64,000 nucleotides of DNA from NCBI RefSeq assembly GCF_027921745.1, contig NC_079238.1, positions 3,720,001 to 3,784,000 on the forward strand, read 5' to 3'. Under the pieces are notes generated by a model. It was not told the DNA's origin, searched no databases, and was given only the letters and a program-made list of their open reading frames with translations. Below are positions 21,301 through 47,450 of the stretch, piece by piece (position 1 is the stretch's first letter; the number at the start of each line of letters is the position of its first letter). This stretch comes from Schizosaccharomyces osmophilus (Eukaryota; Ascomycota; Schizosaccharomycetes; Schizosaccharomycetales; Schizosaccharomycetaceae). The position numbers were made by a program, and so were the translations under genes.

Positions 21301-24300
21301 AATGAAAGGAATCGTGAGTCAGAATTCCACTTTCCTAAGAATTGTTGCTGAAAGGCCATCATAGTTTGAACCACATTTTTATGCGTTAAACAACATCCTT
21401 TAGGTTTTCCAGTACTTCCTGAAGTATATAGAACATAAGCCAAATTTGATTCGTCTAAATCTTCAATAGTTAAGTTTTCACTATCAGAGTCGTAAATTCC
21501 ATGATCACTGGCATTGAGTATGTTGACAGATATATTTGCGGACCGAAGTTTTTCTAATTGATCTTTGGATGAAATGATAAGACCAGAAGAGGAGTCGTCA
21601 ACGATAAATTTAATACGTTCTAGCGGAGCCGTCACATCGAGAGCTAAGAAACAGCAGCCTGCTTTAAGGATTGCCAATATAGCAATAAAGGCCTCAATAC
21701 ATTTATCGAAGTAGATGGAAATTATAGTTCCGGTGTTACAACCATACCTTTTCAAGGTACGCGCAAGTTGATTAGCTTTGCAATTAAACTCCTGGTAAGT
21801 AAATTTCGTTGACATGTATTCATTTATATGGATCTGATTGGCAAACTCCAGGGCAAGGCTTGAAGGCAATTTGCGAGCATAATATTCAACAAATTCGTGT
21901 AAAAATTTAACTTCACATGGATAATCCTGAACTTCGGCAGGTACGACGGAAAGAAGGGTAGTAGGTAAAAATCTTTCAAGTGTCCCAATATCTTCATCTA
22001 AATGGCTTACCATCAAGTTCAGCAGCCAATCGAATTGCTGGACTATTAGTTGTGCATGTTGCTTAGGAATACTTCTGTCAAGCGAGTTTAAAACAATTTC
22101 AGAGCTTGAAGACAATACTCGTAACTCAATAGCAAGAGTGTTTTCCAGAAAAGACTGACTTTCGATTTCATCTGAAAAGATTTCTAAAGGTGTATCTGTA
22201 TCGTCTTCGACTTGCACAGACAAAAGTGAGTCAAAATACGTTTCATTACCACCCAAATTAAGCCATCTTTTAATTTGAGATATTGGTGTGTATTGATATT
22301 TTAGAAATCCCTTATTTCTTTCTTGAATGTCTTTTAAGAGGTCACCAACGCTACCAGAGACGTTTACCGAATAGGGTATGGTTGTTAATGTAGGAAATAT
22401 AGCATCGTTTTCATCCTCCATGAGCGTTTGCCCAGAGAGGATCAAACCGAAAGTAATACAATCCTCAGAGCAGTAAGAGCTTAAAAGCTTGGCCCAAGCA
22501 AGTTGAGCCAACGCCTGAATACTTATATTAAGCTTCCCGCATATTTCTCTAAACTTAAAAATATCAAATGAGGACGGTTTAGAGGTGATGGACCTAGCAT
22601 CACCTGTATGGCGATTAGTGCACAGATTAGGAAATAACGTTGGAGCAAAACCTTCTAATTGCTTTATCCAATATTCCTTGCTTTCAATTGAACGTTGTTT
22701 GTACGCAAGAATTTTTTTAGTGATTATTTCGTGAGAAGAAAGTTCAACTTCTGCTTCCAAAGCATTCTCCACAATTCTCAAAGTATGATTCAAAGATCGC
22801 TCGTCGAAGATAGCATGATGCATAACCAAGATAAAGTAGTGTACATTTTCATTTGTCCTAATAAAAGACAAGGAATAAGGGATACTAGTAGTATCCGATA
22901 ATAATGCCTGTTTTAAATTCCCAACAGCTGTTGACACAGCATCCTCAACCCCAATGGTTTGCTCTCTTAAGAGCCATGGAGGGTTTATATTTTCAAGGGT
23001 AACTTGGGCAAACGGACTTCGTGGGTTATTGATAGATACGAAGTATGTGCGTAACATCGAAATCTTCTTAATGGCTATTTCCCATCGCTTGGAAAAGTCC
23101 CCAAAGATAACATGATCCTTCATTCGATATACGAAATAATTCAAATTCGTTTTCCCTCCACTTGAATGAAATTGGCTTAGCAACGAATTTTGAGAATCAA
23201 CACACGGTAATACACAGTCAATATTAGGAAGATTAGGTAGATGAGGCTTCGTACTCTCTTTGATATCAGCTAAAAATTTGTCAATCATTTCATCACATTC
23301 CACCGGCGGTTGGCTTTCGATGCTTTTTTGTAGCTTCTGGGATAAATCAAAGAGTGTATTACATTCCAAAAGATCTAAAGCAGAAATTTTAGCCTGATAG
23401 CGATTCCGCATAGTCCTTGAAAGCTGAATTGCGCTTAAGGAATCAAGTCCAAGTGAGGAAATTTCCGACTCTAATTTAATAGCCTCCAAAGGAAGTTTAA
23501 AAAAGTTTGAAATCAAAGATGAAACATCATCAACAAAGGAAGATACATTGCTTTTTTGAAGTAAATCCAAAATACTGAATTCATGAATGAATTGACCTTT
23601 CTCATATTTTTCCATCAAAGATGCTTCATCAACTTTTTCGTCAGTATCTAAAGGCATATCCCCAATCAGTACCAAAACATTTGGCGATTGTTTAGACAGA
23701 TAAATTAGCTGACTCTTCAAATCTTCAAGTTTTTCCACGCCCATATCAACTAATAAAAAGGCAATTGAAGAATCCATGGGTTTATCAAGAACAACGCGAT
23801 GTACCTGTCTCACCTCCGGAACTTTCTGAAGAATAAGGTCTTCCCAATTATTGCTGTCGGTTTCTTTCGTTAGTCCTTCAAGCTGGAATGTAGAGTCAGG
23901 CAACAACCGCGCGACGGAATCAGTATAGATATTTAAGGATCCACTAGATACTTCAACAGATTTGTTTTGATCAAGAATACCAAGCAATTCCGCGTTTACA
24001 GCTAAGAGAAGTTGACCGAATCCACATTTTGGAATTATAGTTTTAGCGCTGGGATGCACGATCAGACCTTTGAAGCACCCAATCAGTTTACCAAGTATAT
24101 CCCGAGTTTTATTTGAGAAATGTGTATTTAGAAAACATGGAAAGTTCATATTCTTCATTAAATGAACCCTAACATGTCTTCCATTCCAATATTCCAGTAT
24201 TTTAGATGATAGTTTACCTCCGTACGATATTAATAATTTGACGGACTGAGTCACATCCTTGTTCAGTTTTGACACTAATGCAGAGTTGACATTAAGATGT

Positions 24301-27300
24301 GTTATATTTTGGCTCACAATTACTCTTGGAAGTTTATTACTAAGAGTTTTCTGGGAAGCGGTCACTAAAGTTGCACCTTTCATCCAAACTGTAAAACAGT
24401 CGAACAATTGCATGCTATTCGAGTTGGAAGCAAACTGAAGCCATAAAGACTTTTCGTCTACCTTGCTTGCATTCGAAAAATCCAAAATTGCGTGGAGCAA
24501 CAAGCGATGATCAATTGACACTGCGTTCATTTCCGTATCCCCGATCGGGAAATAAAAACGCATATTGTGATTGTAACTTTTAGGCAAACTAGTATGAGTT
24601 CTAAAAGAAAGTTGACTTTCAAATTCGAATACGCTCAAACATACAGTATCGTTCACATCAAATTCCATGTCAGATACAACAAAGCCTGCATTTATATTTC
24701 GCAAGTACTTGCCAAAATCTTCATGACTTAAAGACGAGTTTACTGAAGAAAAATTCACACCTAATTTAATGCAAGCAAGCATAACACAGTAATGATCGAA
24801 TGACTTTTCCATGTAAGAAATTACGGTATTACCTGTCGAAACACCTTTGGCTAGTAACCAATTTGCCCAACGGTTAGACAAGAAATTTAAATCAGCATAG
24901 GACATGTTCATCAACTGATCGTCGGCTTCAACATACCGAATTGCCTTATTATTAGCATACGCATGTACAGAGCTATCAAGCAACTCTAGAAGGCTAGTTG
25001 GATGTGACCCAGTAATATTCTCCGATTCGTATATTGAAAGATGCTTCTTAAGCTGTAAGTAACTTTCGAGAGTATTTTCAATACCTTCATCAAGGTAAAA
25101 GTTTATAATGTTGATGAAGAGTTCACAAACGTGATGAACAATACGACGATCTGCAGTCGCCACAACGGAAAGAGCTTGATCTTCCTCATTTGGATACAAT
25201 TCCAACATATACTGAAAATCCATTTGCAATTCTTCTTCAACGAGCTTCCAGTTCTCGAAATTTGAATCAAGAGGACCATTTTGTATGATAAGTATTGTGT
25301 CAAACATTGGTACTTTCGGAGAAAATCCCAACATTTTACTTACATCAATTAATGAACTCAGCTCTAAATTTTTAGTCAGCTTTTTTAGTGACTCAAGTCT
25401 CTGCATCGGCTTGAATTGATTATCATCATTGGAATAGAATACTCTTAAAGGGATTGAATTAAAGGTAGGCCCCGCTAGGCTATCCACACCATCTACTGGA
25501 ATGTTGCGTCCACTTACAACATTACCAAAGCAGATATCTTTGTTGCTAGTAATCAACGAAAGCGTCTTCGCCCAACATGCTTGCAAAAAAGAAGAAGTGC
25601 TAACCAAATTTTGTGAGCATATATCTCTTAATTTTAAGTAATTAAGAGGCACCCGCCTGACATAACTTCGTTTTTCATCAGAGGTCATACCGCATGGGAA
25701 AAGAACTGGCTTAAAGTCATTAAAAATACGCTTCCAGGTAACCATCTTCTTCTCGTCATTAATTAAATGCAAATATTCAATATAGGATCGCATGGAAGGT
25801 GAAACAATTAATTGTTCTCCTCTAAATAGTTTGGCCAGTTGATCAAAAATGATTTTGAAACTCCATGCATCATATAACACGTGATGCATGTAAATTAATA
25901 GGTAATTCTTTTGATAACCACGCAGATACTGGAGACGCAGAGGGACTTTTCCTGAATCAACGACCGGAACGGGTTCTACGTCGTAAGAAGTTAGGCGATT
26001 ATCCAAATAAGAAGCTTCTTCAAAAGCAAAATTGGAACTTTTTAGTAAGACTTGGCAGTAAGGATATTTGGAAGAGTTCGTCAAATAAAAGCAGGTCCTG
26101 AGGATCGGAAATGCACGAGCTAACTTTCCAAAAATATCCAACACGGTTGAAGATGACTGGTCACCTATGTCAAAGAGAAATTTATTGTAATAGAAATGCA
26201 TTCCATTCTTTTCCGTGCTGGTAAGAAGCGCTAGCTGCATAGGGGAACAAGGAAATATATCCTCGATATTTGAATCATTAATTAAAGAATTATTCAAGTC
26301 CTCCGGTTTATAGAATTCCACTGATTTCTTACCATGAGTAGGAGAGGCTTTACCTTTATTAACCATTCGACATAGTGTACTTATGGAAGGATAAGATCCG
26401 ATTTGTGAAAAGTTCAGATCTTGAATTCCTTTTTTCCGTAAATCGGAGAAGACACGTAGCAGCATCAAAGAGTCAAGCCCATATAACTGTAAATTCTCAA
26501 AGTGGTCCACGGAGTGCAACGACTTATTCAAAAGCTTTGACAGGCTAGACCTTACTAAATCCTCATTTTCATATACATCATCAAAGTTATCAAGAGCGTC
26601 AACATTGTCATTTAAATTGTCAGTACCATTTGAAATATGATTAAAAGTGAATAAAGCGTCAGCATGCATAATGGTCCTGTTGATGCTGTTTTGAAAATCG
26701 TGTACCAATGTTTCCAAATATTTATCCTGGAATTTTCCCGTAATCTTTATTTCGTAATGTTCATGCTTATCCACTTCAACTAAAAGTGGATATTCGGTTT
26801 TATTAGTAGAGGAAATGGATGCAATAATGTTATCATCGAGGGTGACAGCGGATTGTTGTAAAATTAGCAAACTATTCAGTTGAACTGGATTCTCGTGAAA
26901 CTCTTGAATATCAGCTAAAGAGACAGAAGTATGATCTAGAATTGAAGTTAGACTTGACAATGTCCTCTGGCAATTTTGCTGATGTGAATGCTGTTCCGAA
27001 AGCTCAATCCTAACAGGAAGGGTTCGCATGCATGGACCAACAATGTAATCAATATTTTCAATTAAATTGTTCATTCTTCCGGATATAACGGTACCAATTA
27101 ACATATCAAGACTTTCGGTATGCTTGGACATGACTGCCGACCATGCTGTCAAAAGAAATGATAAAGGTGTTATACGCAATGATTTACAATAATCATCTAT
27201 GTGAAAAGCTTTAAGCTTAGTTGCCCCAGATATAGAAGAAAAGCTTGTAGTGTGATGCTTTAAGCTCATCGAATTAGAATTTTTCAGATATTCTTTCCAA

Positions 27301-30248: not shown

Positions 30249-30403
30249 GAAAACTAGCTCGAGCTAAAAGATGAAAGATCCGAAATCAATCAAAAGAAAT
30301 CAAGAAAAAAGGGAATTCCAAAAAGAAAAAACCAAAGCTGTGCAAAGCGTTGGTAATAGACAGTGTGTTGCGAAAAGATGTGTGATGCGGGTAACTATAT
30401 ATG

Positions 30404-30412
30404 ATCTGATAA
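30404..30412 (+). promoter_or_regulatory. Fep1-type GATA box 1
   Basis: ATCTGATAA, an exact match to ATC(A/T)GATAA, lies 156 bases upstream of the sib1 start codon. The assignment to Fep1 is by motif and context. Confidence 0.7.
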
Positions 30413-30745
30413 CCTTGTTACTTGGCACATAAACAAACACGCAATTCTATCGAAAAGGTCTTTTGTAACGGGAATTGAAATGTGGACAGAAACAAATGTC
30501 CATACGGCTTGCTCGATCGAGTCGGATGAAGTAAAAGTCGAAAATTACGTATCCTTTTCTCTATAGCCTTGTTCGAGTGTTTCTCTTGCTTTCCCTCGAG
30601 ATCAACCGAAAAAGCAGATCCAACAGAAATGTTTAAAGCTTTTACTAGGACTTTCCAACGAAACCAATCGTCTACTTTGAGGCCATCATCGCTCGCTGTT
30701 CCTTGAGTGCTACCTACGTTTATGATATGCTAAAATTTCTCTTTC

Positions 30746-30754
30746 ATCTGATAA
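30746..30754 (+). promoter_or_regulatory. Fep1-type GATA box 2
   Basis: A second exact ATCTGATAA, in the middle of the intergenic region about 500 bases from sib1 and 760 from sib2. It could serve either gene. Confidence 0.7.
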
Positions 30755-30818
30755 ATAATCATTTTATTTGTTTTTCCTTTTATGTTTTTATTTCTTTTCT
30801 TTCATTATTGTTCTTATT

Positions 30819-31154
30819 TTAGTTTTTTTTTCTCGAAAAAGTAATGTTTGGAAGTTTGCTGTAAAGTGGTTTGATGAAAAAAATTTCACCCGTCACAACT
30901 GATTTGAACGTCTCCTCATGAAGACGTAACGAGCGTCCATTGCGTGAGTTCTTTAGCCGTTCTATAGAAAAACTTGACTGCCGTTTCAAGTTATTCATAC
31001 GAAATTCTTCCTTTTTGTTCATTTCCCCTTTGTCTGGCTGAGCCATAAACAAACCTTCCGTATCTGATCGGGTAATTTTTATCTGATCGGATCGGTTACG
31101 TAACAAACCGTTGTCGTACATACAACGACGAGCAATGTAACTTGGTGGTAGCAT
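30819..31154 (-). CDS. Doubtful small ORF, 111 codons
   Basis: An ATG-initiated frame, hydrophilic and Lys/Arg/Ser-rich, with no motif I recognise. It sits wholly in the sib1-sib2 promoter, overlaps a GATA-type box, and encodes an internal RSDxxxxTRSD echo that comes from an 11-base direct repeat (TATCTGATCGG at 31061 and 31080). I recall no gene here in S. pombe. It may be chance; conservation in sister species would decide. Confidence 0.2.
   Translation of the reverse strand: MLPPSYIARRCMYDNGLLRNRSDQIKITRSDTEGLFMAQPDKGEMNKKEEFRMNNLKRQSSFSIERLKNSRNGRSLRLHEETFKSVVTGEIFFIKPLYSKLPNITFSRKKN
31079..31087 (-). promoter_or_regulatory. Fep1-type GATA box 3
   Basis: The minus strand reads ATCAGATAA, again an exact ATC(A/T)GATAA match, about 420 bases upstream of the sib2 ATG. 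Confidence 0.65.
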
Positions 31155-31312
31155 ACTTACCTATATATATCAGTATATTTCCATTCCACTAAATCTTCTT
31201 TTTGTTATATTACACGAAATAGTGTACTATAAAGGGAAGTAGTTTTGGGTGCATATCTTGTTTCATCCATCTGAACAATTTGTTAACGTGTGTGCTTGGA
31301 AACTCTTCGGCT

Positions 31313-31381
31313 CGGTTTGGTTTGGTTTGGATTAGATTGGCGTAACCTAACTTAACTTAACTTAACTTGACTTGGCTTGGT
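31313..31381 (+). repeat. GGTTT and AACTT pentamer tract in sib2 leader
   Basis: About three GGTTT units, a short spacer, then about four to five AACTT-type units decaying into ACTTGG / GCTTGG. The tract ends 130 bases before the sib2 ATG, probably within its promoter or 5' leader. Confidence 0.8.
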
Positions 31382-31510
31382 TAATTGTTTTAGGAAAAAG
31401 AACAAATAAAAGACTTGTTTTCTTTCTTTTCCCTTGCTTTTCGGTGTTTTAATTTTTTGAATCGTCGTAGAATCGTTTTGGATTTTGGTATCGTTCGTTT
31501 ATTTACAAGA

Positions 31511-32815
31511 ATGACATTCGTAAAGGGAACAGAAGAAACTTTGGATTTGGCAATCATCGGATTTGGACCGGCATCGCTTTCTCTGATGGTGGCTCTCCAT
31601 GACCATTCCGAAAAACCTTTGCGTAACAAAAAGGTTTGTGTTTTGGAAAAGTCGCCCTTGTTTTCTTGGCATTCAGGCATGCTGATTCCAGGATCGAATA
31701 TGCAAATTTCATTTGTAAAGGATTTGGCTACACCACGTGATCCAACTTCTTACTTTTCATTTTTGAATTATCTGCATCAGAATGGCGATGAAAGATTTTC
31801 CAGCTTCTTAAACTTATCGACCTTGGAACCCTCTCGCTATGAATTCCATGATTACCTTTGCTGGGCAGCTGGCCATTTCAAGGACTATGTGCAGTACGGT
31901 GCAAACGTAACCAAATTAGAGTACGATCAGTCTTTAGATTTGTATCGTATCACTTATGGCGATCACCAAAAAATCGCCAAAAATGTCATTGTAGCTACGG
32001 GCGGTCAAGCAAATATTCCCAAGCCTTTTTCCTCGTTACAAAGTCCCCAAGTTATCCATTCAAGCGGCTTTATGTTTGACGACAGCCAGCGCAAGCTTCG
32101 TTCGGCTAAGCATGGGGTACTTGTCATCGGTTCTGGTCAATCCGCTGCGGAAATTTGGAATCACAGCCATAACATCATTGATTCCAAGCTTCCTCTTACC
32201 TTGGCTTTCCGCAATTTGTCTCTTATCCCCAGTGATTCCAGTCCCTTTGTCAACTCGTTATATTTTGATAGCCATAATTCTCACTGGTGGTACAATCTCC
32301 CTGAACAAACCCGTATACAGGGCTTGAGAAACGGCCATACCACAAATTACGGAGTCGTCAAAGAAGAATTGCTTGAGGACATGTATCGTGAACAATACAT
32401 GCAAAAACTCAAATACGGCAAGGCCTGCCACAACTTCTTGAATGCCACCTATGTGGATTCCGTGGAACAAAAACAAGATCACATACTCGTTACCCTGGCC
32501 TCCAAACTGGATGGTATTGAAAAAAAGATCACTCAAAAATTCGATGTCATTTATTTAGCCACTGGTTACAACCATGCATCTTACGAAACCATCCTTTCTC
32601 CCATCTTTCCCCATTCCCACGATATTCGTATCGCTGAAAACTACCTCGTTGAAAACACTCCTTCCAAAAACAGCCGTCTTTTTGTTATTGGCATCTCAAC
32701 GTATCAGCACGGTATTGGTGAAACCTTGCTTAGTTGGACTGCCATTCGTGCTGGTGAATTGGCTTCTCAAATATTTGGACCAAGCAAGCCTACTGCTCGC
32801 CCTTTTTCTCCTTAA
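31511..32815 (+). CDS. sib2: L-ornithine N5-monooxygenase Sib2
   Basis: The start is taken at the ATG at 31511 (MTFVKGTEETLDLAIIGFGP), giving 434 residues; the open frame extends upstream only without an ATG. The enzyme hydroxylates ornithine N5 with FAD and NADPH, the first committed step toward ferrichrome. The FAD motif GFGPASLSL is at residues ~17-25. IPGSNMQISFVKDLATPRDP is the substrate-side signature shared with SidA. The NADPH motif GSGQSAAE is near 210, and the ATGY motif lies near 355. The gene is divergent from sib1 and shares its GATA-box promoter, so both should be induced in iron starvation. Two flavin-dependent steps and acylation precede Sib1; the acyltransferase is not in this window. 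Confidence 0.95.
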   Translation: MTFVKGTEETLDLAIIGFGPASLSLMVALHDHSEKPLRNKKVCVLEKSPLFSWHSGMLIPGSNMQISFVKDLATPRDPTSYFSFLNYLHQNGDERFSSFLNLSTLEPSRYEFHDYLCWAAGHFKDYVQYGANVTKLEYDQSLDLYRITYGDHQKIAKNVIVATGGQANIPKPFSSLQSPQVIHSSGFMFDDSQRKLRSAKHGVLVIGSGQSAAEIWNHSHNIIDSKLPLTLAFRNLSLIPSDSSPFVNSLYFDSHNSHWWYNLPEQTRIQGLRNGHTTNYGVVKEELLEDMYREQYMQKLKYGKACHNFLNATYVDSVEQKQDHILVTLASKLDGIEKKITQKFDVIYLATGYNHASYETILSPIFPHSHDIRIAENYLVENTPSKNSRLFVIGISTYQHGIGETLLSWTAIRAGELASQIFGPSKPTARPFSP

Positions 32816-36124: not shown

Positions 36125-36903
36125 TTCATGTTACACCGTTTTACCCAAAAGAAAGTCCTAGAGCTTGTTTTCTATTACAAAAAACCGAATGGAAATGTTT
36201 TATAAACAATTTAAGAGAATGGTAGAATACAAAGCAGGGCTCCCTCACCCGTTAGCTCTTCCAAACGTATCGAAGGTTTTTGTGGGTAGTGTTTTGCTTT
36301 TCCAGCATTCCATATACAGTACGAGTATAAAGAATTTAGTACAGCAGAAAAGCAATTCAGGAAGAAAATGATATTTGTACTTTAAATTTAAAATTATTGT
36401 GAAGTAGTCCATTTTCCTATTCCTCGTGTTCTCTCGATAATACTATTGAATATCATCTTACTCGTAACAAATGTTCCCTATGAAAGCATGAGAGAAATCG
36501 TTCAAATAAAATTAGAATTAAAATCATGCAAATGTACAATTGTATCAGGTTTGACCCATTTCACCTTTACACTCTACATCAACTTCTAATGTCCAGGCGC
36601 TTTTCATTTGTAAAGCTAAAGGAAAACCAAAAACCACTTCTGCCCAAAATAAGTTTCGAAAACAAACCTCAAAAGTCATTTTAAAAGAAAAAAAAAAGGT
36701 ATTTTTGTAATTCGCAAGTAGGGAATAATGTAACCATTGTTTGTTTACGACTGCAACTTTCAAAAGATGCGTTCTAATTCGTTATCCTAATTACAGTATT
36801 GCTGCTGTTTGCTCCACAAAATGTGGCCGTTCATAAATTTTCTGCGCTTCACCAACAACTACCAAAGCATACTACACGTTTAAAAACGTGAAAAGTCGCA
36901 GAA
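36125..36903. other. Divergent promoter region, Rax1-like / nop58
   Basis: No gene supported. Two ~70-codon frames (36165-36371 and 36545-36763) look like chance. A small perfect inverted repeat (CACGTTT / AAACGTG) lies at 36875-36890, in or near the nop58 5' leader. Confidence 0.5.
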
Positions 36904-38537
36904 ATGTTGATTCTTACAGGTAAATAACTTTCTGCCTTGCAAGTTATGATGAAAACAAGAAATTAACAAAGTTTAGAGACTGCGGCCGGTTATGCCGTTT
37001 TTAAGGCAAAAGATAAATTGTTGAAAAAGCGTGAAGCCTTAGTCGACGACTTAAAAACAGCTGAAGGTGCTTCGAATATGTATGGAAAAGCAAAAACAAA
37101 TACTGAATTTCACTAACACCGGTTTGTAGCTTAAAATTGCAGTCATTTGCAAAATTCGAAAGTACAGTGGATGCCGTCGACAATGTCTCCGCTCTTATCG
37201 AGGGCAAGGTTTCCCCTAAGCTTTCAAATCTTTTGAAGGACTTGTCCGACAAAAAAAATAATATGCTTGTTGTTGCTGATCCCAAGCTTGGTAACGCCAT
37301 TAACAAATTGCCTGGTCTTGAGTTTGAGGTTATGTCTGACTCATCCGTCCAGGATCTATACCGTGGTATTCGTGAGCATATGTCTTCGTTGATTGCTGGC
37401 TTGGCACCCTCTGATATTAACGCCATGTCTTTGGGTCTTTCGCACTCCCTTTCTCGTCATAAGCTCAAGTTCTCTCCCGACAAGGTTGACACAATGATCG
37501 TTCAAGCAATTGCTCTCCTTGACGATCTCGACAAAGAGTTGAATACCTACGCTATGCGTGTTCGTGAATGGTATGGTTGGCATTTCCCTGAAATGGGCAA
37601 GATTGTTCAAGATAACTTGGCATATGCCCGCGTTATTAAGACTATGGGTATGCGTACCAGCTGTTCTTCTACCGATTTCAGCGATGTTCTTCCTGAAGAA
37701 GTCGAGGCCACTTTAAAGAGTGCTGCTGAGATTTCTATGGGTACCGAAATTACCGCCGAAGATTTGGAAAACATTTCTATCTTGGCACAACAAGTTCTTG
37801 ATTTGGCAGCTTACAGAGCTCAGTTATCAGAATATCTCCGCAACAGAATGCATGCCATTGCTCCCAACTTGACTGCTCTTGTCGGTGAACTTGTCGGTGC
37901 TCGTTTGATAGCTCACGCTGGCTCTTTGATGAACTTGGCCAAGCAACCTGCTTCCACTCTCCAAATTTTGGGTGCTGAAAAGGCTCTTTTCCGTGCCTTG
38001 AAAACCAAGCACAGTACTCCCAAGTACGGTTTGATCTACCACGCTAGCTTGGTTGGTCAAGCTAATTCTAAAAACAAGGGTAAAATAGCTAGAGTTTTGG
38101 CTACCAAGGCCGCCTTGTCCCTTCGTGTTGATGCTTTGACTGACAAAAATATTGTTGATGGTAACGTCGGTCTGGAGAATCGCATTCGCGTTGAAAACCG
38201 TCTTCGTTCCCTTGAAGGTGGAAAGCTTTTGCCTTTGCCAACCGCCTCGGTTCAACAACAAAAGCACGATATCAGTGGTGGTGCCGCCTACAACCCTGCT
38301 ACTGACACTGTTGTTACCACCGATGACGCTGATAAGAAGGAAGAGAGTGAAAGTGAAGAAGAAAAACCCAAGGAAGACAAGGATTCCAAAAAGAAGAAGA
38401 AAAAGTCTTCCAAGAGTAAGGATGTTGATGAGTCATCAGATAGCAAAAAGGAAAAGAAAAAGAAGAGAAAATCTGAAGACGGAGAAGAAGCTTCTGGCGA
38501 GAAAAAGAAGAAAAAATCCAAGAAATCTAAATCTTAA
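36904..38537 (+). CDS. nop58: Box C/D snoRNP core protein Nop58 (three exons)
   Basis: Exons 36904-36919, 36977-37079 and 37130-38537 join in frame to 508 residues, the S. pombe length. The introns use GTAAAT / TTTAG and GTATGG with CTAAC then TGTAG. The reading is [17 protein letters not shown]..., then SFAKF, the Nop5/Nop58 N-terminal domain. The NOP domain follows, with [21 protein letters not shown]-like residues (here [16 protein letters not shown]) at ~300 and [19 protein letters not shown]. The C-terminal ~80 residues are KKE/KKD repeats typical of nucleolar Nop56/58. It scaffolds fibrillarin and 15.5K on C/D snoRNAs for rRNA 2'-O-methylation. The two small 5' exons would be lost in an ORF-only annotation. 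Confidence 0.95.
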
Positions 38538-39093: not shown

Positions 39094-39222
39094 GTCTACG
39101 GTCACACCTAGGCGAAAACACCAGTTCCCGTCTGATCGCTGCAGTTAAGTGAAGCGTCTGAGGGTCTCGTTAGTTCAATACTGCGGTTGGAGACAACATG
39201 AGAATCCGGGATGCTGTAGGCT
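39094..39222 (+). rRNA. 5S rRNA variant, elongated (possible pseudogene)
   Basis: Starts GTCTACGGTCACACCTAGGC and ends GATGCTGTAGGCT, clearly 5S rRNA, but 129 bases long against 119 for the copy at 41549. About five extra bases follow GCAGTTAAG and about five lie near GTTAGT, plus several substitutions. The internal C-box region GGTTGGAGACAACATG is kept, and a T-run (pol III terminator) follows at once. It could still be transcribed, but the extra bases would disturb the fold, so a pseudogene is likely. Confidence 0.85.
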
Positions 39223-39727
39223 TTTTGCAATCCTTGTTCTTTTGTATGCAAGCATCCTGAAGAGTAATGAAAAGACCGGCGGACATTATGACAAAAAATG
39301 CTTTACTTTCCAATATAGAGATATGCATTTCTAATCCTGCTATTTATAATTTAAGCAAACAGCATGATTTCTTTGCTCAAAGTTCCTTTGTTTACTTTTT
39401 GTAATAAACGACGACTCTTTTGGATTATACTATTAAGAAAAATCGCAATGAGGACTGTGACCAGTCAGTGACATAATGTCGCTGCTTTTATGAATTAAGA
39501 CATGCGAAAAGCCATTACCATGATTTTTTCAAACTCGCATCGTTGGTTTTAAAGGAAAAGTTAAGCTGAATGATTTATTTGCTTTTTTGGAGCGAGGCTC
39601 AATTCCCTTTTTCGACAGATTATTGAAAAGTGCAACCAGTTCCAACGGACTTTTCTTAGTGATTCTAGTTGATTTCGTTTAGAGTGTAACTATCGGTGTT
39701 ATTTTGGCTCTAATTGCCATTGTAAAT
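39223..39727. other. wtf 5' flank
   Basis: Half a kilobase between the 5S variant and the wtf-family gene. It contains one FLEX-like site (listed). No gene otherwise. Confidence 0.5.
39387..39395 (-). promoter_or_regulatory. FLEX-like (Mei4-type) core
   Basis: The minus strand reads GTAAACAAA, the core of the FLEX element bound by the meiotic forkhead factor Mei4, about 330 bases upstream of the wtf first exon. Orientation and function are unproven. Confidence 0.4.
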
Positions 39728-40799
39728 ATGAAAAACAAATATACTCCTATTTCAGATTCTGATGACTCTTCCAAAACGCTCAATGATGAAAAGGCAGATA
39801 GTCAGTCGTCTCCTTCTGATGGTACGCCTCCTCCGTATACAGGTAAGATTAGTTGAAATAGAAAGGAAAGGTTGATTCTTTGTGTTCTTGCTGGAACGGT
39901 TCTTGATGGAAGAATCATGCTTGTTTATTTATTTGTCGGGTTTGAAACTAATAACCTTGTCGATAACTGTCAGCAAACATTATAGACACCTCTATCTTTT
40001 TACAAACAAAGAACTATTTACTAATACATCCATTAGCTTCAACCAAATTTATTGATCTCGAAATGGCTCCTGAAACAGAAGAAAGTTCTAAAAAGAAAAG
40101 ATATCTGACGCCTCGTGAATTAGCAATTGTTTTTGCTATTTTTATTGTATATAATGTATGCTTAATTATTGCGAGGGTCATTCTTCTTGTTTACGAAATT
40201 CCGTTTAATCAGCTTGCCGTTTGGGTACTTTTTGGCGTTTGGTGCGCTCTATTTCTGTCATTGACAATTGGTAAGAAACTAATTTCAGGATTTTTAATGA
40301 CTCACTAACTATTAGTAATAACTCAAATGCCTAAAGAATGGTTCACGCAAGCTGGTAGAGTGCTGCACAACATGTTGACGGCAGCAATCTCTGTGTGTTG
40401 TTTCAATGGTTTCTGTTACTTTATTGGAAAGAAGCTAGTATGGACTGAAAACATAAACTCGTTCTGTTACTGGCTGTTTGGTGCCATTGACATAATGTTT
40501 ATTCTTGTTTTAACGAGTATGCGATACACCCTGCGAAATATTCTAACTGTTCTAGTGAATGCAAATGCGCGTGAAATATTAAGATTAGTTCTCGTCGATC
40601 TGAGAAACGGCATAGGCGTTGGCGTAAACGGAATAGGAAACGCTGTGGATCGTATTTTAGGTTTGTACACTTCGTAAATGCTTGCTATCGTTAGGGCTTT
40701 AATTAACCTATTTTAAAGATACAAATCGAGGAGAGCAAGTACCTCAGAACGAAGGAATCGAACTTCAGCCTCTTGCTGAGCAAAGCGCTGAAGTTTGAG
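39728..40799 (+). CDS. wtf-family gene (spore poison/antidote meiotic driver family), looks whole
   Basis: The first exon begins MKNKYTP and has a Pro-rich end (PPPYT), the wtf N-terminal signature. Coding segments at about 39728-39842, 40037-40270, 40316-40663 and 40727-40799 are bounded by splice signals. I see no break in them, so it looks whole, though small (~255 residues) for the family. The second and third segments hold several hydrophobic membrane helices; the last is short and polar, Gln/Glu-rich. wtf genes make two products from one locus: a long antidote and a shorter poison started inside intron 1, which together kill spores that do not inherit the locus. An in-frame ATG at 40063 in the second segment fits such a short form. 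Flanking by 5S genes is as known for wtf in S. octosporus relatives. Driver activity is not shown; it could be antidote-only. Confidence 0.8.
40001..40010 (+). promoter_or_regulatory. Degenerate FLEX-like site in wtf intron 1
   Basis: TACAAACAAA lies within intron 1, about 35 bases before the second exon and 53 before the in-frame ATG at 40063. In S. pombe drivers a FLEX site in this place drives the short transcript in meiosis. The match is imperfect. Confidence 0.3.
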
Positions 40800-41548
40800 T
40801 TTGAGTTTTACCGAACCTGCTTTCATTCTTTATATTTCGCTCCTTCTTTGGAAATATCCATGTCAATTGCAGTCCATCAAGTTTCTGCATTCGCATCCAC
40901 CAAAGTAAGCATTATCGTTATATGATAGCTTTAATTGCTTTTCTCATTCGCTCTTTCATGAATCTGTTGATTCGTTTCACAGCATCGTTGTTTACGCATT
41001 GTTCATCTTCTTCGTGAATAGAACACCTTTTTAATGATTATTTAATTATTCCGACGAAAATTCTGCCGTAATGAACTTCGTACTTTCCGCATATAATTCA
41101 TAAATGGCAGGGACGAAAGTGATTACCGCCAGAGGTAAAATTGATTCACAGCGTAGAAAGCACAAATCTTCAGATTAAAAGATTCGACAGATGTAGCTTA
41201 ATAAATTAAATTATCGTTTATATGGTGAGTCAAGTCGACGCACTATGAAAATATATTAGTGGATCCATATATATGAAAGTTCAAGGTTTTTTCAAACCAT
41301 AAACTCATACGCTGAGTCTTACACTTAGCGGCGTAGAAACAAAGCTCTGACAGCCTAGTAGGATGTGAACCAATAGAAAAGAGAAAAACAGTGTGTTTTC
41401 AAATATTATTCTTATAATATGAAAGCATTCTCCATTCAACCGTGATAAATTACCAGATAGAACTGAGCCGAATTGGATCTTGTAGTTCATCAAGCCAAAA
41501 AGACTGGATCAATTATGAATTAAATTATTTTTACAGACCACAACAAAC
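40800..41548. other. Intergenic, wtf 3' side to canonical 5S
   Basis: No gene seen. It contains one copy of a dispersed repeat at 41156-41208 (listed). Confidence 0.5.
41156..41208 (+). repeat. Dispersed repeat, copy 1
   Basis: About 45-50 bases match 62451-62500 at roughly 85% by eye. The shared blocks are GAAAGC, CAAATCTTCAGATT, AAGATT, GAC, GAT and TAGCT. It contains a short inverted repeat (AATCTT / AAGATT). The family is not identified. Confidence 0.6.
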
Positions 41549-41667
41549 GTCTACGGCCACACCTAGGCGAAAACACCAGTTCCCGTCCGATCACTGCAGT
41601 TAAGCGTCTGAGGGCCTCGTTAGTACTATGGTTGGAGACAACATGGGAATCCGGGGTGCTGTAGGCT
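41549..41667 (+). rRNA. 5S rRNA, canonical copy
   Basis: 119 bases, the exact fission yeast length, from GTCTACGGCC to GTGCTGTAGGCT, with an intact A-box/C-box internal promoter (GGTTGGAGACAACATGGG). Almost identical to the remembered S. pombe 5S sequence. The nearest strong T-run is about 25 bases past the end. Fission yeast 5S genes are scattered singly rather than kept in the rDNA array. It transcribes in the same direction as the wtf gene. Confidence 0.96.
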
Positions 41668-42160: not shown

Positions 42161-42931
42161 ATGGACCAAGAGTTATTTAAAAACCCATTTGAAGTTGCTC
42201 CACCATCTGATGATTCTTTTGCATCCTTAGAAAAATTCACTTATGAATTGGTGGGGGCAGTTCCCCAAAAGAAGTTCAATAGATTCAGAAGCAAGCTGAT
42301 CAACCTCTACAAAGCACTTGCATCTAAACTAGAAGAAGAGGCTCCTCCACAAGATGATATGTCTGAAATTCGAGAGATGCTTCAAGACTTAAGAGAAGAC
42401 ATGTCTCAAGAGCTTAATGAAAAGTTAGGTAGCCTCAGAAAAGATGTCGAGAGCATGAAAAAAGAACTACAATCAGTGGATGCACAAATGCAATTTGTTG
42501 ATACCAATTCTAGAGGATATTATATTGATATTACCTCAAAAATCAAGGAAAATAATTCCGAGATAAACAAGGCAAGAACCTCAGCACAGAGATCGGAAAA
42601 CACTGTAAACAGAGTTATTTTCAAAGATACAAAGCCAGTTCCATTTATCAATGGACAAAAAACTCCTTCTGAACTGCCTGAATTAAGAGTTATTTCTGAC
42701 ATTGATAATTTGAATCCAAGCCAACTAAAAACATACCTGGAGGGATATGGTGGTAAGTATGAAGATAAAGAACCTCAGGCATCTCTTAAAAGAAAGCTTG
42801 CAGATCACGTTGGTTTTGTTACGTCCGAAGATTCCCGTTACGAGTTCTCAGACAATAATGAACCCCTTTCTAAATATGCCAAATCGGTACACCAAACCGA
42901 AGGTGAAGAGTCATGCTCCATCAAAGGTTGA
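42161..42931 (+). CDS. Unrecognised coiled-coil protein with SAP-like segment
   Basis: A 256-residue single-exon frame from ATG to stop, not recognised. What can be seen: an acidic N-terminus (DQELFKNPFEVAPPSDDSF), a basic patch (KKFNRFRSKL), and a long heptad-rich acidic/basic coiled coil from ~67 to ~155 (MSEIREMLQDLREDMSQEL onward). Next is a Pro-rich link (DTKPVPFINGQKTPSELPEL) and a segment at ~182-216 (LNPSQLKTYLEGYGG...KRKLADHV) that looks like a SAP or LEM-type helix-turn-helix. A polar tail closes it. It lies between a 5S gene and a decayed 5S copy, next to the wtf gene and in the same direction. Gene families travelling with wtf and 5S are reported in the S. octosporus group (called wag, as I recall); membership is a guess. 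Confidence 0.75.
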   Translation: MDQELFKNPFEVAPPSDDSFASLEKFTYELVGAVPQKKFNRFRSKLINLYKALASKLEEEAPPQDDMSEIREMLQDLREDMSQELNEKLGSLRKDVESMKKELQSVDAQMQFVDTNSRGYYIDITSKIKENNSEINKARTSAQRSENTVNRVIFKDTKPVPFINGQKTPSELPELRVISDIDNLNPSQLKTYLEGYGGKYEDKEPQASLKRKLADHVGFVTSEDSRYEFSDNNEPLSKYAKSVHQTEGEESCSIKG

Positions 42932-43070: not shown

Positions 43071-43194
43071 TTCTACTTAATGCCTACCATCACAATACTT
43101 GTTGCCGTTTGATCGTTGCAATGAGGGTTGCCTAACCTCAAATTAGCAGTATGCATGGTAGGAGACAACATGGAAATCCGACATATTATAGACT
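43071..43194 (+). pseudogene. Decayed 5S rRNA copy
   Basis: About 124 bases align end to end with the 5S at 41549 in the same orientation. The start TTCTAC matches GTCTAC, the middle GTTGCCGTTTGATC matches GTTCCCGTCCGATC, and the 3' part GGAGACAACATGG.AATCCG is nearly unchanged, then TATAGACT matches TGTAGGCT. TTTT follows. Much of the 5' half has drifted, so it cannot fold as normal 5S. The kept C-box core could be chance or constraint. Confidence 0.75.
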
Positions 43195-43433: not shown

Positions 43434-44279
43434 TCATTTTGGGTAAATGTTCTGTTGATATTGATTAAACATTGGAACATGTTGTTGACCAGAATCAGGT
43501 AATTTTTGCTGCATATTTGAATACATATCTTGACTGTAAACATTTTGTGGAGCATTGTTTAGTTGAATGGTATCGGGAGTAGTCCTTGTGGCTGCCACAG
43601 GAGGACGCATGTCCGTTGAGTTTCGGGCCATCGTTGGATTCATTATAGAGTATTGGGTTTGCGGGTAAGAATTATAAGAGTTCATTAAATCTTGTTGCGA
43701 TCGTAAGGTATTCACGACTGTCGGTGAGGCACGTTGTCCATTGGGATTCGCTCCGTTATCAAAAGATTTGTTTGGAAAAGAATTATCCAAGCTTGTAGAG
43801 TTAAAATGACCGTAAGGTGAGTTCTGAGGATTGGACTCTGCATTTTGTACTGGGTAAGAAGGTGCTTTGGATTGCGACTTTTGAAACATCTGTCGAAGCA
43901 CCTCATAATGAGGTTCTAAATAAGGCATGCCTTCAGGGCAAGTCAAAGGAGGTAACGTGGTTTGTGTTTGTCGCCCTGAAGCCAAAGACGCCAAGAATGC
44001 AAGGTTGTCTTTGATGCGTCTCATGTACCTATTATTTAGTTAGCTGTTTTGGTCCTTTCGGATCTCCTTTAAATCTTGCAAATCGTATCTAGCACATTTA
44101 TATTACCTTGTAAGCATTATAGCCATTTTACTCTGTATGTCTGCATCGCTAGCGTACAATTTTTTTATCTGATGTAACTCGGCACATCTCCATAACAGAT
44201 GGCTATTTATTTCAAGTAGTTTGTTCAATCGTTCATGATCCTGTAAAGTTGTACTCACGTTACCGCTAGCCGTATTCAT
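43434..44279 (-). CDS. snf30: SWI/SNF complex subunit Snf30 (two exons, SS18-like N-terminus)
   Basis: Exon 1 is 44107-44279 and exon 2 is 43434-44028; the intron has GTAATA, CTAAC and ATAG, and the frame continues to give 255 residues. The first ~75 residues (LNKLLEINSHLLWRCAELHQ, then MLTRYMRRIKDNLAFLASLA) resemble the SS18/SSXT N-terminal helix domain that anchors SS18 to the BAF complex. The rest is Asn/Gln/Pro/Ser-rich low complexity (QNAESNPQNSPYG, MFNQYQQNIYP), again like SS18's QPGY tail. Identity rests on the syntenic place of SPAC23G3.07c plus this resemblance. It acts in nucleosome remodelling in the nucleus. A track-only reading would miss exon 1 with half of the domain. Confidence 0.85.
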
Positions 44280-44963: not shown

Positions 44964-47450
44964 TCATTTTATTTTTTCGTAGAAAAGCATATAAGCTTCC
45001 ACCTTAGAAACCTCTTCCCAGGTAGTTTTCGAGACCATATTGTCACTTATGTATAACCATTGACGTTCTTTGCTTCCTGGTTCTGTTTCAGATTCCGGCG
45101 TTTCAGATGTTGGAGACGCAGACCTATCCGCTGGAACATGCTTGTGAGACAACACATAAGCGACGTAATGGCCGTAATTCAATGTCCCTGAATGGGTAAC
45201 GACACCAAACAATCTATACTTATTCCCTTCTAATGATTGTAGCGTGGGCATAACAAACTCGTTGACGTCTAGTTCTTGGTCAAACTGTACAAACCCAGTG
45301 ATTTTTTTTGGATCGCAACTTCCATCAGCCGAAAAATAGTGATGAAACCGCTTCAAGTGAATCACAAACACGGGTGGTAACGGTGAATCAATTAAGAGTC
45401 GCTTATAAGCTTCCCGATAAGTGAAATCCACAGAACAATCGCAAGCACTTTCATCTTCAGTGTTTTCTTGCGATACACTATTATGATTAGAGGAAGATTT
45501 ACAGTCGCAACTACGACCACAAGACTCGCAAGCAAACATATTGTCGCCACTTAACTCTTCTATGCGAGTAAAGTTGCGTAAACAGTCAACAATGGTATTT
45601 GGCTCATTTATACAAGAACTATTGGCAATCATTGATTCTGGAAAAATGAGAGATGATAAATTGTTAGACTGTTTTTGCGACCGACGAGAATAATTAGATC
45701 GATTACTCAACCTCCGAAAACTTTGAAAATATGAACTACCGGCTGATTTTTCATCCTCAGCGGAATGTTCATTAGGCGTCTCAGACTTATCTCCCTGGGA
45801 GTCATCAGCCTTATTTTTTTCGTTTTCAGGATTAACATCATCAATTATAATTTTTACGTCTGGTACCCCAGTTGGTTTCTTTGGTGATCTTCCAAAACGA
45901 GACCGCAGCGCACGATGTAAGCGATGACGCTTGCTCAAGCTTTTTGAATGCGCATGTATAGATAAAGAGAAGTCTTGTGTAGGCTCATAGCTTTTGCTAA
46001 CTTCCTTGCAGTTTTTACATAAAATAAGACTTACAAGGCGACCTGTGAATGAAGAATCTATCACTGTATGAGCAGAATCTTCATCTAGAATCATCGAAAC
46101 TTCAGAATCATTTGCAAAAGATGCTGCAGACTTGTCAAACTTTGGAGAGTGATTATTTATCTTGTTAATTCCATCATGGGAGGAATCTTCCTGCGAGTGA
46201 AGGTTAAAATCTCGTCTATTATCCCTTTTGAAAGGATTGTTGGAACCAGTTATGACGAAGTCTTCGTCTGGCTTTGTTTCACTTATGTTGACAATGCTTG
46301 ATTGAATAGAGTCAATTTTTTTTAACGAATGATCCTCCTTGCTTACACAAGGAATAGGAGAAGTACTAGGGGAATGTGTATACGAAGAAGCAGAATTAGC
46401 GCCCACAATGGGGGAGTCCTCTTTTATAGGAGTAGCCAAAGGACTGGCAGACTTATGGTTATTGTTTGATTGATGTCCATTCTCAGAAGGAACTTTTGAA
46501 TGCGATTGGAGCAAAGGTGGCTCAATATTGTTAGCGGCTTTAGCAACTTCTTTTTCCTCATTTATTAAATCATTAAGTAAGTACCTTAGAAGTTCATGCG
46601 CGTCCTGTTGAACTCCCTCAGTAAACTGAGGATGACGGGATCGAAATTCGCTAAATAAAATTCCTGGGCGAAAAACGGTTACGGATCCGTCCGCTTTGTA
46701 AAAGGATTCCATAAACCTTACAAATGAGGAAAGCAACGAAGAATCTAAATGATTTTCGAAATGTAACTTTGGATCCCTATCTGGATGGAAAGGATGCCGA
46801 CTAATACAGTCGTGAAGGTGTTCAGATGAAGATAAGACTTGCAAAACAGAATTAAAGTAGCATGTTGCACCCATGTTTTTTAAACCAGGATGAATGATAT
46901 GCAGCTTTGGAGAGGAAGAGGATTTGAAAAAATGTTTCGAAAAAGTGGATGATTTTTCCTGAGACTTTGCATTTAGTGAAGTATCTGGTGAAATATCTTG
47001 TTGCTCAGAGGAAACAGAAGAGACAAGGTTGGTGCGGATAAACTGAGAAACGTCTCGAATTACCATGTTCTTTTTGTCGAAGGGAAGGACCTCCATGTTG
47101 CATGCATAACAGAAGCTTTTCAGTGTTATGATATTTACGAAAACAGAGTGCTTGTTATTTTTCTTATAGTGAGTTAGCGAATGATTATCATTGTGGGCAC
47201 AAAATAAATAGCCACAATTAGTACAAATATTTAGTTCATAATCCTCATTCGTCCTTGAACCGACCGCACAAAGGAGGCATAAGTGCTTGCTTGGGTCACG
47301 AAGAGTCCGGGCGTTATTCTTGATATAAGAAAGTTTCACGCCCTTTTTTAAATGCAAACATGATTTCACTTGGGAAATCATTTCCTCTCTAGTAGATAGC
47401 TGAGAAGCTTCTTCTCGTATCTGCATCGATAAGGCTTCGTGTGTATTCAT
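44964..47450 (-). CDS. ubp7: Ubiquitin C-terminal hydrolase Ubp7 (USP16/45-like, ZnF-UBP)
   Basis: The ATG at 47450 gives 828 residues. A ZnF-UBP finger at ~25-105 (CLHLKKG, CLLCAVGS, CTNCGYLFCAHN, HY, H) binds the free ubiquitin tail. The USP catalytic domain follows, with the Cys box GLKNMGATCYFNSVLQVL (~187-204) and the His box SGTLNYGHYVAYVL (~750). A long Ser/Asn/Asp-rich insertion (~300-500) splits the catalytic core, and a Cys-rich zinc ribbon (CESCGRSCDCKS...CDC) lies inside it. It removes ubiquitin from protein substrates. Paired by synteny with SPAC23G3.08c. The protein is slightly shorter than the ~875 residues of S. pombe, a difference the low-complexity insertion could account for. 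Single exon by frame. Confidence 0.93.
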   Translation of the reverse strand: MNTHEALSMQIREEASQLSTREEMISQVKSCLHLKKGVKLSYIKNNARTLRDPSKHLCLLCAVGSRTNEDYELNICTNCGYLFCAHNDNHSLTHYKKNNKHSVFVNIITLKSFCYACNMEVLPFDKKNMVIRDVSQFIRTNLVSSVSSEQQDISPDTSLNAKSQEKSSTFSKHFFKSSSSPKLHIIHPGLKNMGATCYFNSVLQVLSSSEHLHDCISRHPFHPDRDPKLHFENHLDSSLLSSFVRFMESFYKADGSVTVFRPGILFSEFRSRHPQFTEGVQQDAHELLRYLLNDLINEEKEVAKAANNIEPPLLQSHSKVPSENGHQSNNNHKSASPLATPIKEDSPIVGANSASSYTHSPSTSPIPCVSKEDHSLKKIDSIQSSIVNISETKPDEDFVITGSNNPFKRDNRRDFNLHSQEDSSHDGINKINNHSPKFDKSAASFANDSEVSMILDEDSAHTVIDSSFTGRLVSLILCKNCKEVSKSYEPTQDFSLSIHAHSKSLSKRHRLHRALRSRFGRSPKKPTGVPDVKIIIDDVNPENEKNKADDSQGDKSETPNEHSAEDEKSAGSSYFQSFRRLSNRSNYSRRSQKQSNNLSSLIFPESMIANSSCINEPNTIVDCLRNFTRIEELSGDNMFACESCGRSCDCKSSSNHNSVSQENTEDESACDCSVDFTYREAYKRLLIDSPLPPVFVIHLKRFHHYFSADGSCDPKKITGFVQFDQELDVNEFVMPTLQSLEGNKYRLFGVVTHSGTLNYGHYVAYVLSHKHVPADRSASPTSETPESETEPGSKERQWLYISDNMVSKTTWEEVSKVEAYMLFYEKIK

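What the first reader, a model, noticed from the sequence alone, without database searches (positions are those of the whole stretch)
39094..41667. wtf-family gene framed by two 5S rRNA genes
A gene with the wtf N-terminal signature and multi-helix layout sits between two 5S copies, all in the same direction. wtf genes are poison/antidote meiotic drivers. The 5S-wtf-5S arrangement is the pattern reported in the S. octosporus group, where 5S copies seem to act as landing or recombination sites. It looks whole and is small for the family.
Basis: partly seen in the sequence, partly recalled or inferred. Interest (0 to 1): 0.85.

Follow-up and report, generated by a model that had tools for sequence, protein, structure and literature searches.

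The report
Killer-gene pair framed by 5S genes
A stretch of fission-yeast DNA carries an intact-looking wtf spore-killer gene and, right beside it, an intact-looking gene of a second, unrelated killer family, interleaved with copies and a relic of the small 5S ribosomal RNA gene, so two selfish genes may have reached the same spot through 5S copies.

Summary
Two same-strand 5S copies sit exactly at 39094-39222 (degenerate) and 41549-41667 (canonical). Between them lies a five-exon gene (39728-40798) with one PY motif in exon 1, an in-frame second ATG at nucleotide 27 of exon 2, four hydrophobic helices, phase-1 introns and a wtf-type 7-residue repeat in exon 4: the published layout of non-pombe wtf drivers. 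No such model appears in 400 shuffles or 300 control segments. Direct similarity to wtf is not significant (Pfam WTF 9.0 bits), as expected for this fast-evolving family.

The ORF at 42161-42931 is an intact member of the tdk (Mug135/Tdk1) family, a second, unrelated killer meiotic driver family. A decayed third 5S relic follows it (about 43094-43180). The order is 5S(degenerate)-wtf-5S-tdk-5S(relic), all on one strand.

The wtf gene is a new member of a known kind. Drive, transcripts and species identity could not be tested.

The parts
39094..39222 (+). 5S rRNA copy 1, degenerate (two 5-nt insertions, 8 substitutions against copy 2)
   Evidence: Rfam RF00001 70.7 bits; 111 of 119 aligned positions identical to copy 2, gaps 5 and 5
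39728..39842 (+). wtf exon 1: antidote start, PY motif PPPY at residues 34-37
   Evidence: PY motif [L/P]PxY described for antidotes
39843..40036 (+). intron 1, 194 nt, expected to hold the poison promoter; no FLEX match with fewer than 2 mismatches
   Evidence: FLEX scan
40037..40270 (+). wtf exon 2; in-frame poison ATG at 40063 (nucleotide 27 of the exon)
   Evidence: same position as S. octosporus wtf25
40316..40516 (+). wtf exon 3 (membrane helices)
   Evidence: hydropathy
40517..40555 (+). intron 3, 39 nt, GTATGC..CTAAC..TAG; in frame, so retention would also be open (257 aa)
   Evidence: pattern found 0 times in 40,851 coding bases of 21 long ORFs of the window
40556..40660 (+). wtf exon 4, carries the IGVGVNG-IGNAVDR repeat
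   Evidence: 6 of 8 consensus positions; 4 of 20000 shuffles reach it
40719..40798 (+). wtf exon 5 and stop (preceding intron 40661-40718 has the unusual donor GTTTGT)
41549..41667 (+). 5S rRNA copy 2, 119 nt, full match to the family
   Evidence: Rfam RF00001 105.6 bits
42161..42931 (+). intact tdk-family (Mug135/Tdk1) ORF, 256 aa
   Evidence: Pfam Mug135_C PF08593 E 4.6e-14; PDB 9ja6/9ja5 Mug135 chains E 1.5e-11 and 1.9e-10, entries titled Tdk1 tetramer complex and Tdk1-Bdf1 complex; PP motif at residue 62
43094..43180 (+). third, strongly decayed 5S relic
   Evidence: local score 48 against at most 36 for 60 dinucleotide shuffles of the 5S scanned over the window's + strand; 76 of 109 aligned positions identical, 8 gaps; alignment; not found by Rfam at E<=1

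Best explanation
The reported feature is an intact wtf-family gene of the driver type (two starts), not antidote-only, in a 5S-wtf-5S unit. It lies directly upstream of an intact tdk-family gene that is itself followed by a 5S relic, between a NOP58-like gene and a small gene upstream of a ubiquitin hydrolase.

Shown here: the gene structure, the two in-frame starts, the PY motif, the hydrophobic helices, the repeat, the 5S copies and relic, and the tdk homology.

Inferred from work on relatives: the long transcript makes an antidote whose PY motif recruits Rsp5/NEDD4-type ligases. A short transcript starting in intron 1 makes the 197-aa poison lacking that tail. The poison reaches all spores, and only spores inheriting the gene keep the antidote.

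Also inferred: the unit arrived by recombination at a pre-existing 5S gene, and the neighbouring tdk gene came the same way. The pair would be inherited as one block carrying two unrelated killers. The upstream 5S has since decayed, so the 5S-5S recombination that probably removed such a gene elsewhere should be less likely here.
For: Gene model and controls. Poison ATG at nucleotide 27 of exon 2 and a 10-residue exon-4 repeat region, as in S. octosporus wtf25. Single PY motif. 5S copies. tdk homology. Published 5S association of wtf (72 of 83, 33 of 42 and 2 of 5 genes in three species), duplication to pre-existing 5S genes, and likely 5S-mediated presence/absence of S. osmophilus wtf31. ORFs intact beside decayed 5S copies: at the copy-1 rate, 256 of 3000 neutral simulations keep the wtf ORF with substitutions alone and 0 of 3000 with single-base indels; tdk stays open in 141 of 3000 at the copy-1 rate and 0 of 3000 at the relic rate.
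Against: Similarity to the Pfam WTF model is not significant (9.0 bits, E 1.5, cut-off 25, on the 197-aa form only); two unrelated models score higher (XK-related 14.6, DUF6594 13.9 bits). No FLEX match with fewer than 2 mismatches in intron 1. Intron 4 has an unusual donor, and other spliced readings are open, some longer. If the 39-nt intron 3 is retained, the repeat falls at poison nt 505-534, exactly where it is in wtf25 (arithmetic), so the exon count is not beyond doubt. One of five tested non-pombe poisons was non-toxic (S. osmophilus wtf19), and of 21 tdk1 homologs tested in PMC12930445 (15 plus 6) two showed substantial killing, so intact structure does not prove drive. The neutral-decay argument assumes the 5S copies began to decay when the genes arrived, which is unknown.
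Confidence: 0.68

Rival explanations
1. It is a wtf gene but a spent one: suppressed, weakly expressed or antidote-only in practice, kept for resistance or by gene conversion, with no drive today.
For: No FLEX match with fewer than 2 mismatches in intron 1. One of 5 tested non-pombe wtf poisons was non-toxic and 19 of 21 tdk1 homologs showed no substantial drive. The upstream 5S is decayed.
Against: The poison start is intact and in frame. Confident FLEX hits are absent from all 31 intact S. osmophilus wtf genes, and 14 S. octosporus genes without one still make the short transcript.
Confidence: 0.4
2. The wtf and tdk genes are neighbours by chance: two independent insertions at one intergenic site with no shared mobilisation and no joint inheritance advantage; the third 5S relic is unrelated to tdk.
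For: [quoted passage not shown] The relic is far more diverged than copy 1, so it may predate both genes.
Against: Three 5S-derived sequences alternate with the two genes on one strand, and the scan shows no other 5S-like stretch above background in the 64-kb window. S. cryophilus wtf1 is SPOG_03611 and a tdk pseudogene is SPOG_03615, hinting at a second close pair if locus tags run in order.
Confidence: 0.4
3. The gene is not wtf but another small multi-helix membrane protein that happens to sit between 5S copies.
For: No significant Pfam or PDB match.
Against: Combination of one PY motif in exon 1, poison ATG at nucleotide 27 of exon 2, phase-1 introns, exon-4 IGN repeat and 5S framing. The WTF model is listed for the real 197-aa form but for 0 of 7 pattern-preserving shuffles and 0 of 3 other window proteins, though 5 of the 7 shuffles drew weak hits to other families, so this is weak.
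Confidence: 0.04

Closest known systems
S. octosporus wtf25 (functional poison-antidote driver; PMC9562144, PMC11642804)
   Same: Five exons; poison starts at nucleotide 27 of exon 2; 10-residue repeat region in exon 4; species whose antidotes carry one conserved PY motif and whose wtf genes are 5S-associated in 72 of 83 cases (wtf25's own context not seen).
   Different: Sequence comparison was not possible with the tools held. The repeat lies 11 codons earlier in the antidote here (2 codons later if intron 3 is retained). Whether wtf25 has a FLEX site was not seen; here no match has fewer than 2 mismatches.
S. osmophilus wtf31 locus (5S-flanked wtf with presence/absence polymorphism; PMC10085805)
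   Same: wtf between tandem 5S genes.
   Different: There, recombination between the 5S copies probably explains the gene's absence in one strain; here copy 1 has diverged from copy 2 with two insertions and the longest shared exact block is 30 nt.
S. pombe Tdk1 (Mug135) and S. cryophilus tdk210/tdk203 killer meiotic drivers (PMC12930445)
   Same: The neighbour ORF has PF08593 (IPR013902), a PP motif between N- and C-terminal regions, and a length (256 aa) near Tdk210 (its C-terminal fragment ends at residue 234).
   Different: No 5S association is mentioned in that main text. Clade, ortholog and activity of this ORF are unknown.
wag genes (wtf-associated genes; PMC9562144)
   Same: A gene often found beside 5S and wtf.
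   Different: wag often lies between wtf and the upstream 5S, and in S. octosporus is divergent to wtf; the neighbour here is downstream of the second 5S, on the same strand, and is tdk. The tdk preprint names wag as a separate family.
FSARs, 5S-associated centromeric repeats (PMC6538654, PMC10085805; passages read)
   Same: 5S genes in tandem repeat units, some with ORFs.
   Different: FSARs are centromeric; this locus lies among ordinary protein genes.

Membership tests
wtf | Significant sequence similarity to wtf proteins | tested here: inconclusive
   Pfam WTF PF03303 9.0 bits, E 1.5, cut-off 25, residues 21-126 of the 197-aa poison to profile 88-194; not listed for the 244-aa or 257-aa form (E<=1), nor for 10 controls. 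No wtf protein sequence is held in the tools I used.
wtf | Five-exon gene structure | tested here: met
   chosen among several open spliced readings; intron 3 could be retained in frame, which would leave four exons.
wtf | In-frame second ATG near the start of exon 2 (poison) | tested here: met
   40063, nucleotide 27 of exon 2. With the alternative intron-1 acceptor at 39974 (also open) it would lie further in.
wtf | PY motif in the antidote-specific N-terminal tail | tested here: met
   One PY motif, PPPY at residues 34-37, exon 1; motif definition.
wtf | Four to eight predicted transmembrane helices | tested here: met
   Four non-overlapping 19-residue hydropathy peaks above 1.4; a left-to-right count gives five segments, the first three abutting. 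Simple hydropathy, not TMHMM. Range 4-8.
wtf | 7-residue IGNxxxG repeat in exon 4 (variable, not in all members) | tested here: met
   6 of 8 consensus positions over two units; 4 of 20000 shuffles.
wtf | FLEX/Mei4 motif in intron 1 (present in some members only) | tested here: not met
   Best matches have 2 mismatches (mismatch count, not the authors' FIMO test). Not required: confident hits in 0 of 31 intact S. osmophilus and 20 of 48 S. octosporus genes.
wtf | 5S association in the non-pombe species | tested here: met
wtf | Two meiotic transcripts; meiotic drive | not testable with these tools
   No RNA or cross data available.
tdk (neighbour gene 42161-42931) | PF08593 / IPR013902 C-terminal domain | tested here: met
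   E 4.6e-14, 52.9 bits, cut-off 23.8.
tdk (neighbour gene 42161-42931) | PP motif between the two regions | tested here: met
   PP at residues 62-63 (also at 14-15). A two-letter motif, so weak alone.
tdk (neighbour gene 42161-42931) | N-terminal Z-shaped domain | tested here: inconclusive
   Residues 4-48 align with Mug135 10-54 at only 0.7 bits; the single-sequence AlphaFold model has mean pLDDT 51.6.
tdk (neighbour gene 42161-42931) | Killing of non-carrier progeny | not testable with these tools
   Needs crosses.
wag | Gene between wtf and the upstream 5S, divergent to wtf | tested here: not met
   No ORF of 100 aa or more lies between 39094 and wtf exon 1 in the six-frame list; a broken wag relic was not searched for.
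5S rRNA | Rfam RF00001 above gathering score | tested here: met
   Both framing copies; the third relic does not reach it.

The most novel reading that the evidence does not exclude
5S copies mobilise not only wtf but killer meiotic drivers of unrelated families. This locus would be a compound killer haplotype: two mechanistically independent single-gene drivers (a membrane poison-antidote pair and a chromosome-segregation toxin-antidote) captured in tandem at one 5S site, inherited as a block, and partly locked in place by decay of the outer 5S copies.
Probability: 0.25. Interest if true: 0.78.

Novelty: new member of a known kind. Interest (0 to 1): 0.5.

Why it matters
As a wtf gene alone it adds one more intact candidate to a family estimated to be over 100 million years old. 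With the tdk neighbour it becomes a test case. If both are active, a spore lacking the locus faces two unrelated poisons, so a suppressor of one would not rescue it, and linked drivers could protect each other from loss. The 5S relics also give a way to ask how killer genes arrive, how long they stay, and whether the same recombination sites spread different driver families.

Tried and rejected
Considered and set aside: (1) a four-exon gene with the 39-nt segment coding; kept as an alternative, because the segment has a full donor, branch site and acceptor, a pattern found 0 times in 40,851 coding bases; the exact match of repeat position with wtf25 in that reading counts against me. (2) The neighbour ORF as a retrotransposon Gag or a wag gene (my first two guesses): rejected after the Pfam and PDB matches. 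(3) Longer open spliced models: those ending exon 4 at 40623 lose the second repeat unit and need a 95-nt last intron; those with the intron-1 acceptor at 39974 push the second ATG deeper into exon 2. Neither is excluded without RNA. (4) Naming the species: Rpb2 is close but not identical to 3h0g chain B (S. pombe by recall; printed alignment was cut), so this looks like a Schizosaccharomyces other than S. pombe. No genome is held, and supplements could not be read. (5) Homology of the 300-nt flanks of the two 5S copies: none beyond shuffles.

Led nowhere: text search for the first letters of the window's wtf protein (0 papers); PDB search with the wtf protein (two hits at E about 8); RNA folding of the 5S copies (not diagnostic); structure model of the tdk ORF (pLDDT 51.6), whose PDB fold search ranked the two Tdk1 entries first but only at E 0.065 and 0.3. 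No scans of viral or genome contig collections were made: wtf was found only in fission yeasts by PMC9562144, and those collections are viral or prokaryotic.
Full report
Observation. Rfam finds two 5S rRNA genes on the + strand at 39094-39222 (70.7 bits) and 41549-41667 (105.6 bits); nothing else in the window reaches a gathering score. The second is a full 119-nt 5S gene. The first is a damaged copy: 111 of 119 aligned positions agree with copy 2, and two 5-nt insertions interrupt it. The longest exact block shared by the two copies is 30 nt, and their 300-nt flanks show no similarity beyond shuffles.

Gene. Between them a five-exon gene reads through with four phase-1 introns and gives 244 aa. 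Other spliced readings are also open, some longer; I prefer this one for its fit to the family. The exon-1 tail carries the only PY motif, PPPY at residues 34-37. The second in-frame ATG lies at 40063, nucleotide 27 of exon 2, and would give a 197-aa product. Hydropathy shows four non-overlapping peaks above 1.4. Two repeat units, IGVGVNG and IGNAVDR, lie in exon 4; they match 6 of 8 fixed positions of the published IGNxxxG unit taken twice, which 4 of 20000 shuffles of the protein reach. A model of this kind (four phase-1 introns in set size ranges, at least 230 aa, at least four hydrophobic segments; criteria set after seeing the gene) was found 3 times in the real region, once with both PY motif and early exon-2 ATG, in 0 of 400 dinucleotide shuffles and in 0 of 300 other 1,201-base segment readings of the window. 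The 39-nt intron 3 has a donor, branch site and acceptor pattern that occurs 0 times in 40,851 bases of 21 long ORFs of the window.

Comparison with wtf. De Carvalho et al. 2022 (PMC9562144; abstract, sections 5, 7-11 and 34, part 1 of section 6, and passages seen) accepted non-pombe wtf genes on amino-acid conservation, five-exon structure, a promoter feature, an alternative transcript start in intron 1 and an alternative ATG near the start of exon 2, and describe the 5S association. Passages of PMC11642804 state that the S. octosporus wtf25 poison begins at the 27th base of exon 2, that its 10-residue repeat region lies in exon 4, at bases 640-669 of the antidote and 505-534 of the poison, and that functional Wtf proteins have four to eight predicted helices. 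The present gene has its poison start at the same base and a 10-residue repeat region at antidote 607-636, poison 466-495. If intron 3 were kept, the poison position would be 505-534, the same as wtf25, a point against my five-exon reading. Passages of PMC10721834 state that antidotes of intact S. octosporus, S. osmophilus and S. cryophilus wtf genes all carry a single conserved PY motif, and explain how it turns a toxic membrane protein harmless. Direct sequence evidence is weak: Pfam WTF scores 9.0 bits (E 1.5) on the 197-aa form only, over the helices, below two unrelated models. It is absent from seven pattern-preserving shuffles and three other window proteins, but 5 of the 7 shuffles drew weak hits to other families, so little rests on this. 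The most similar wtf pair between S. pombe and S. octosporus shares 16% identity, so a weak match is expected. In intron 1 no FLEX match has fewer than two mismatches; confident FLEX hits occur in 0 of 31 intact S. osmophilus and 20 of 48 S. octosporus genes.

The neighbour. The ORF at 42161-42931, 493 bases after the second 5S and on the same strand, matches Pfam Mug135_C (E 4.6e-14) and the Mug135 chains of PDB 9ja6 and 9ja5 (E 1.5e-11 and 1.9e-10), entries titled Tdk1 tetramer complex and Tdk1-Bdf1 complex. PMC12930445 (preprint, December 2025; [quoted passage not shown] pombe and S. cryophilus. The ORF here is open over 256 codons, has a PP motif at residue 62 and a mostly helical N-terminal part in a low-confidence model. 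162 bases further on lies a third 5S relic, 76 of 109 aligned positions identical with 8 gaps, including a 20-nt stretch (GGAGACAACATGGAAATCCG) that differs from copy 2 at one base. Its alignment score of 48 exceeds the maximum of 36 for 60 shuffles scanned against the window, and no other 5S-like stretch stands out on either strand.

Locus. The order is NOP58-like gene (37263-38537), 5S degenerate, wtf, 5S, tdk, 5S relic, a gene without Pfam match at E<=1 (43434-44024), then a ubiquitin hydrolase (44964-47450). From recall, this gene order (rpb2, sib1, sib2, ies4, nop58, snf30, ubp7, taf4, rpn6) matches an S. pombe block in which nop58 and snf30 are neighbours, which would make the 5S-wtf-5S-tdk-5S stretch the inserted part. 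I did not test this against S. pombe DNA.

Mechanism. Established in relatives: alternative starts give poison and antidote; ubiquitination via the PY motif neutralises the antidote; 5S copies frame wtf genes, wtf genes appear to duplicate to existing 5S genes (a 5S present in 5 of 6 and 11 of 12 syntenic wtf-free sites examined by the authors), and recombination between framing copies probably explains the absence of wtf31 from one S. osmophilus strain. Inferred here: this gene is of the two-product driver type; the tdk gene beside it reached the site by the same route; the two are now inherited together. A neutral-decay control gives some support for upkeep of the ORFs. Mutating the wtf coding sequence at the rate seen in 5S copy 1 leaves it open in 256 of 3000 runs with substitutions alone and in 0 of 3000 with single-base indels added. 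The tdk ORF stays open in 141 of 3000 at the copy-1 substitution rate and in 0 of 3000 at the relic rate, with or without indels. This assumes the 5S copies began to decay when the genes arrived; if the decay is older, or the genes were refreshed by gene conversion, it does not hold.

Novelty. A wtf gene between 5S copies is a known arrangement. For the wtf-tdk pair, the main text of PMC12930445 has 0 mentions of 5S rRNA or 5S rDNA and, in the parts I saw, describes a wag gene between two tdk genes near a chromosome end but no wtf-tdk pair. PMC9562144 has 0 mentions of tdk1. In the library, tdk1 with 5S rRNA finds one paper, on a bacterial strain of that name (listing only), and tdk1 with 5S rDNA finds none. 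Supplements, where gene maps would show such pairs, could not be read. Locus tags suggest a wtf gene and a tdk pseudogene lie close together in S. cryophilus too (SPOG_03611 and SPOG_03615). So the pairing may be known to those groups, and I claim only that I did not find it in print.

Verdict. The added value is the second killer family and the third 5S relic. I rate the wtf gene as a new member of a known kind and the pair as the part worth following.

Noticed in passing
42161-42931: Intact tdk-family (Mug135/Tdk1) ORF directly beside the 5S-wtf-5S unit; a second, unrelated killer meiotic driver family.
   Followed up: yes
about 43094-43180: Third, decayed 5S relic downstream of the tdk gene, same strand, below Rfam detection.
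   Followed up: yes
41156-41285 and 62451-62589: A repeat of about 130 bp (a 50-bp core is 86% identical) with an inverted-repeat centre occurs between wtf and the second 5S and again 21 kb away; identity unknown, possibly a fragment of a mobile element.
   Followed up: partly
5127-5137 (+) and 36738-36748 (-): Exact 11-base FLEX/Mei4 motifs, candidate meiotic promoters of neighbouring genes.
   Followed up: no
15306-32815: 4,980-aa ORF that reads by eye like a nonribosomal peptide synthetase (not searched) beside an L-ornithine monooxygenase (Pfam); by recall the ferrichrome pair sib1-sib2.
   Followed up: partly
39843-40036: Intron 1 has no FLEX match with fewer than 2 mismatches, and confident hits are also missing from all 31 intact S. 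osmophilus wtf genes, leaving open how the poison transcript would be started.
   Followed up: partly
window as a whole: Species unresolved. If it were reference S. cryophilus, this gene would have to be wtf1 (SPOG_03611; of the two intact genes wtf2 lacks the poison start), but SPOG_03615 there is a tdk pseudogene four tags away, unlike the intact next-door gene here. This points softly to another species of the group.
   Followed up: partly
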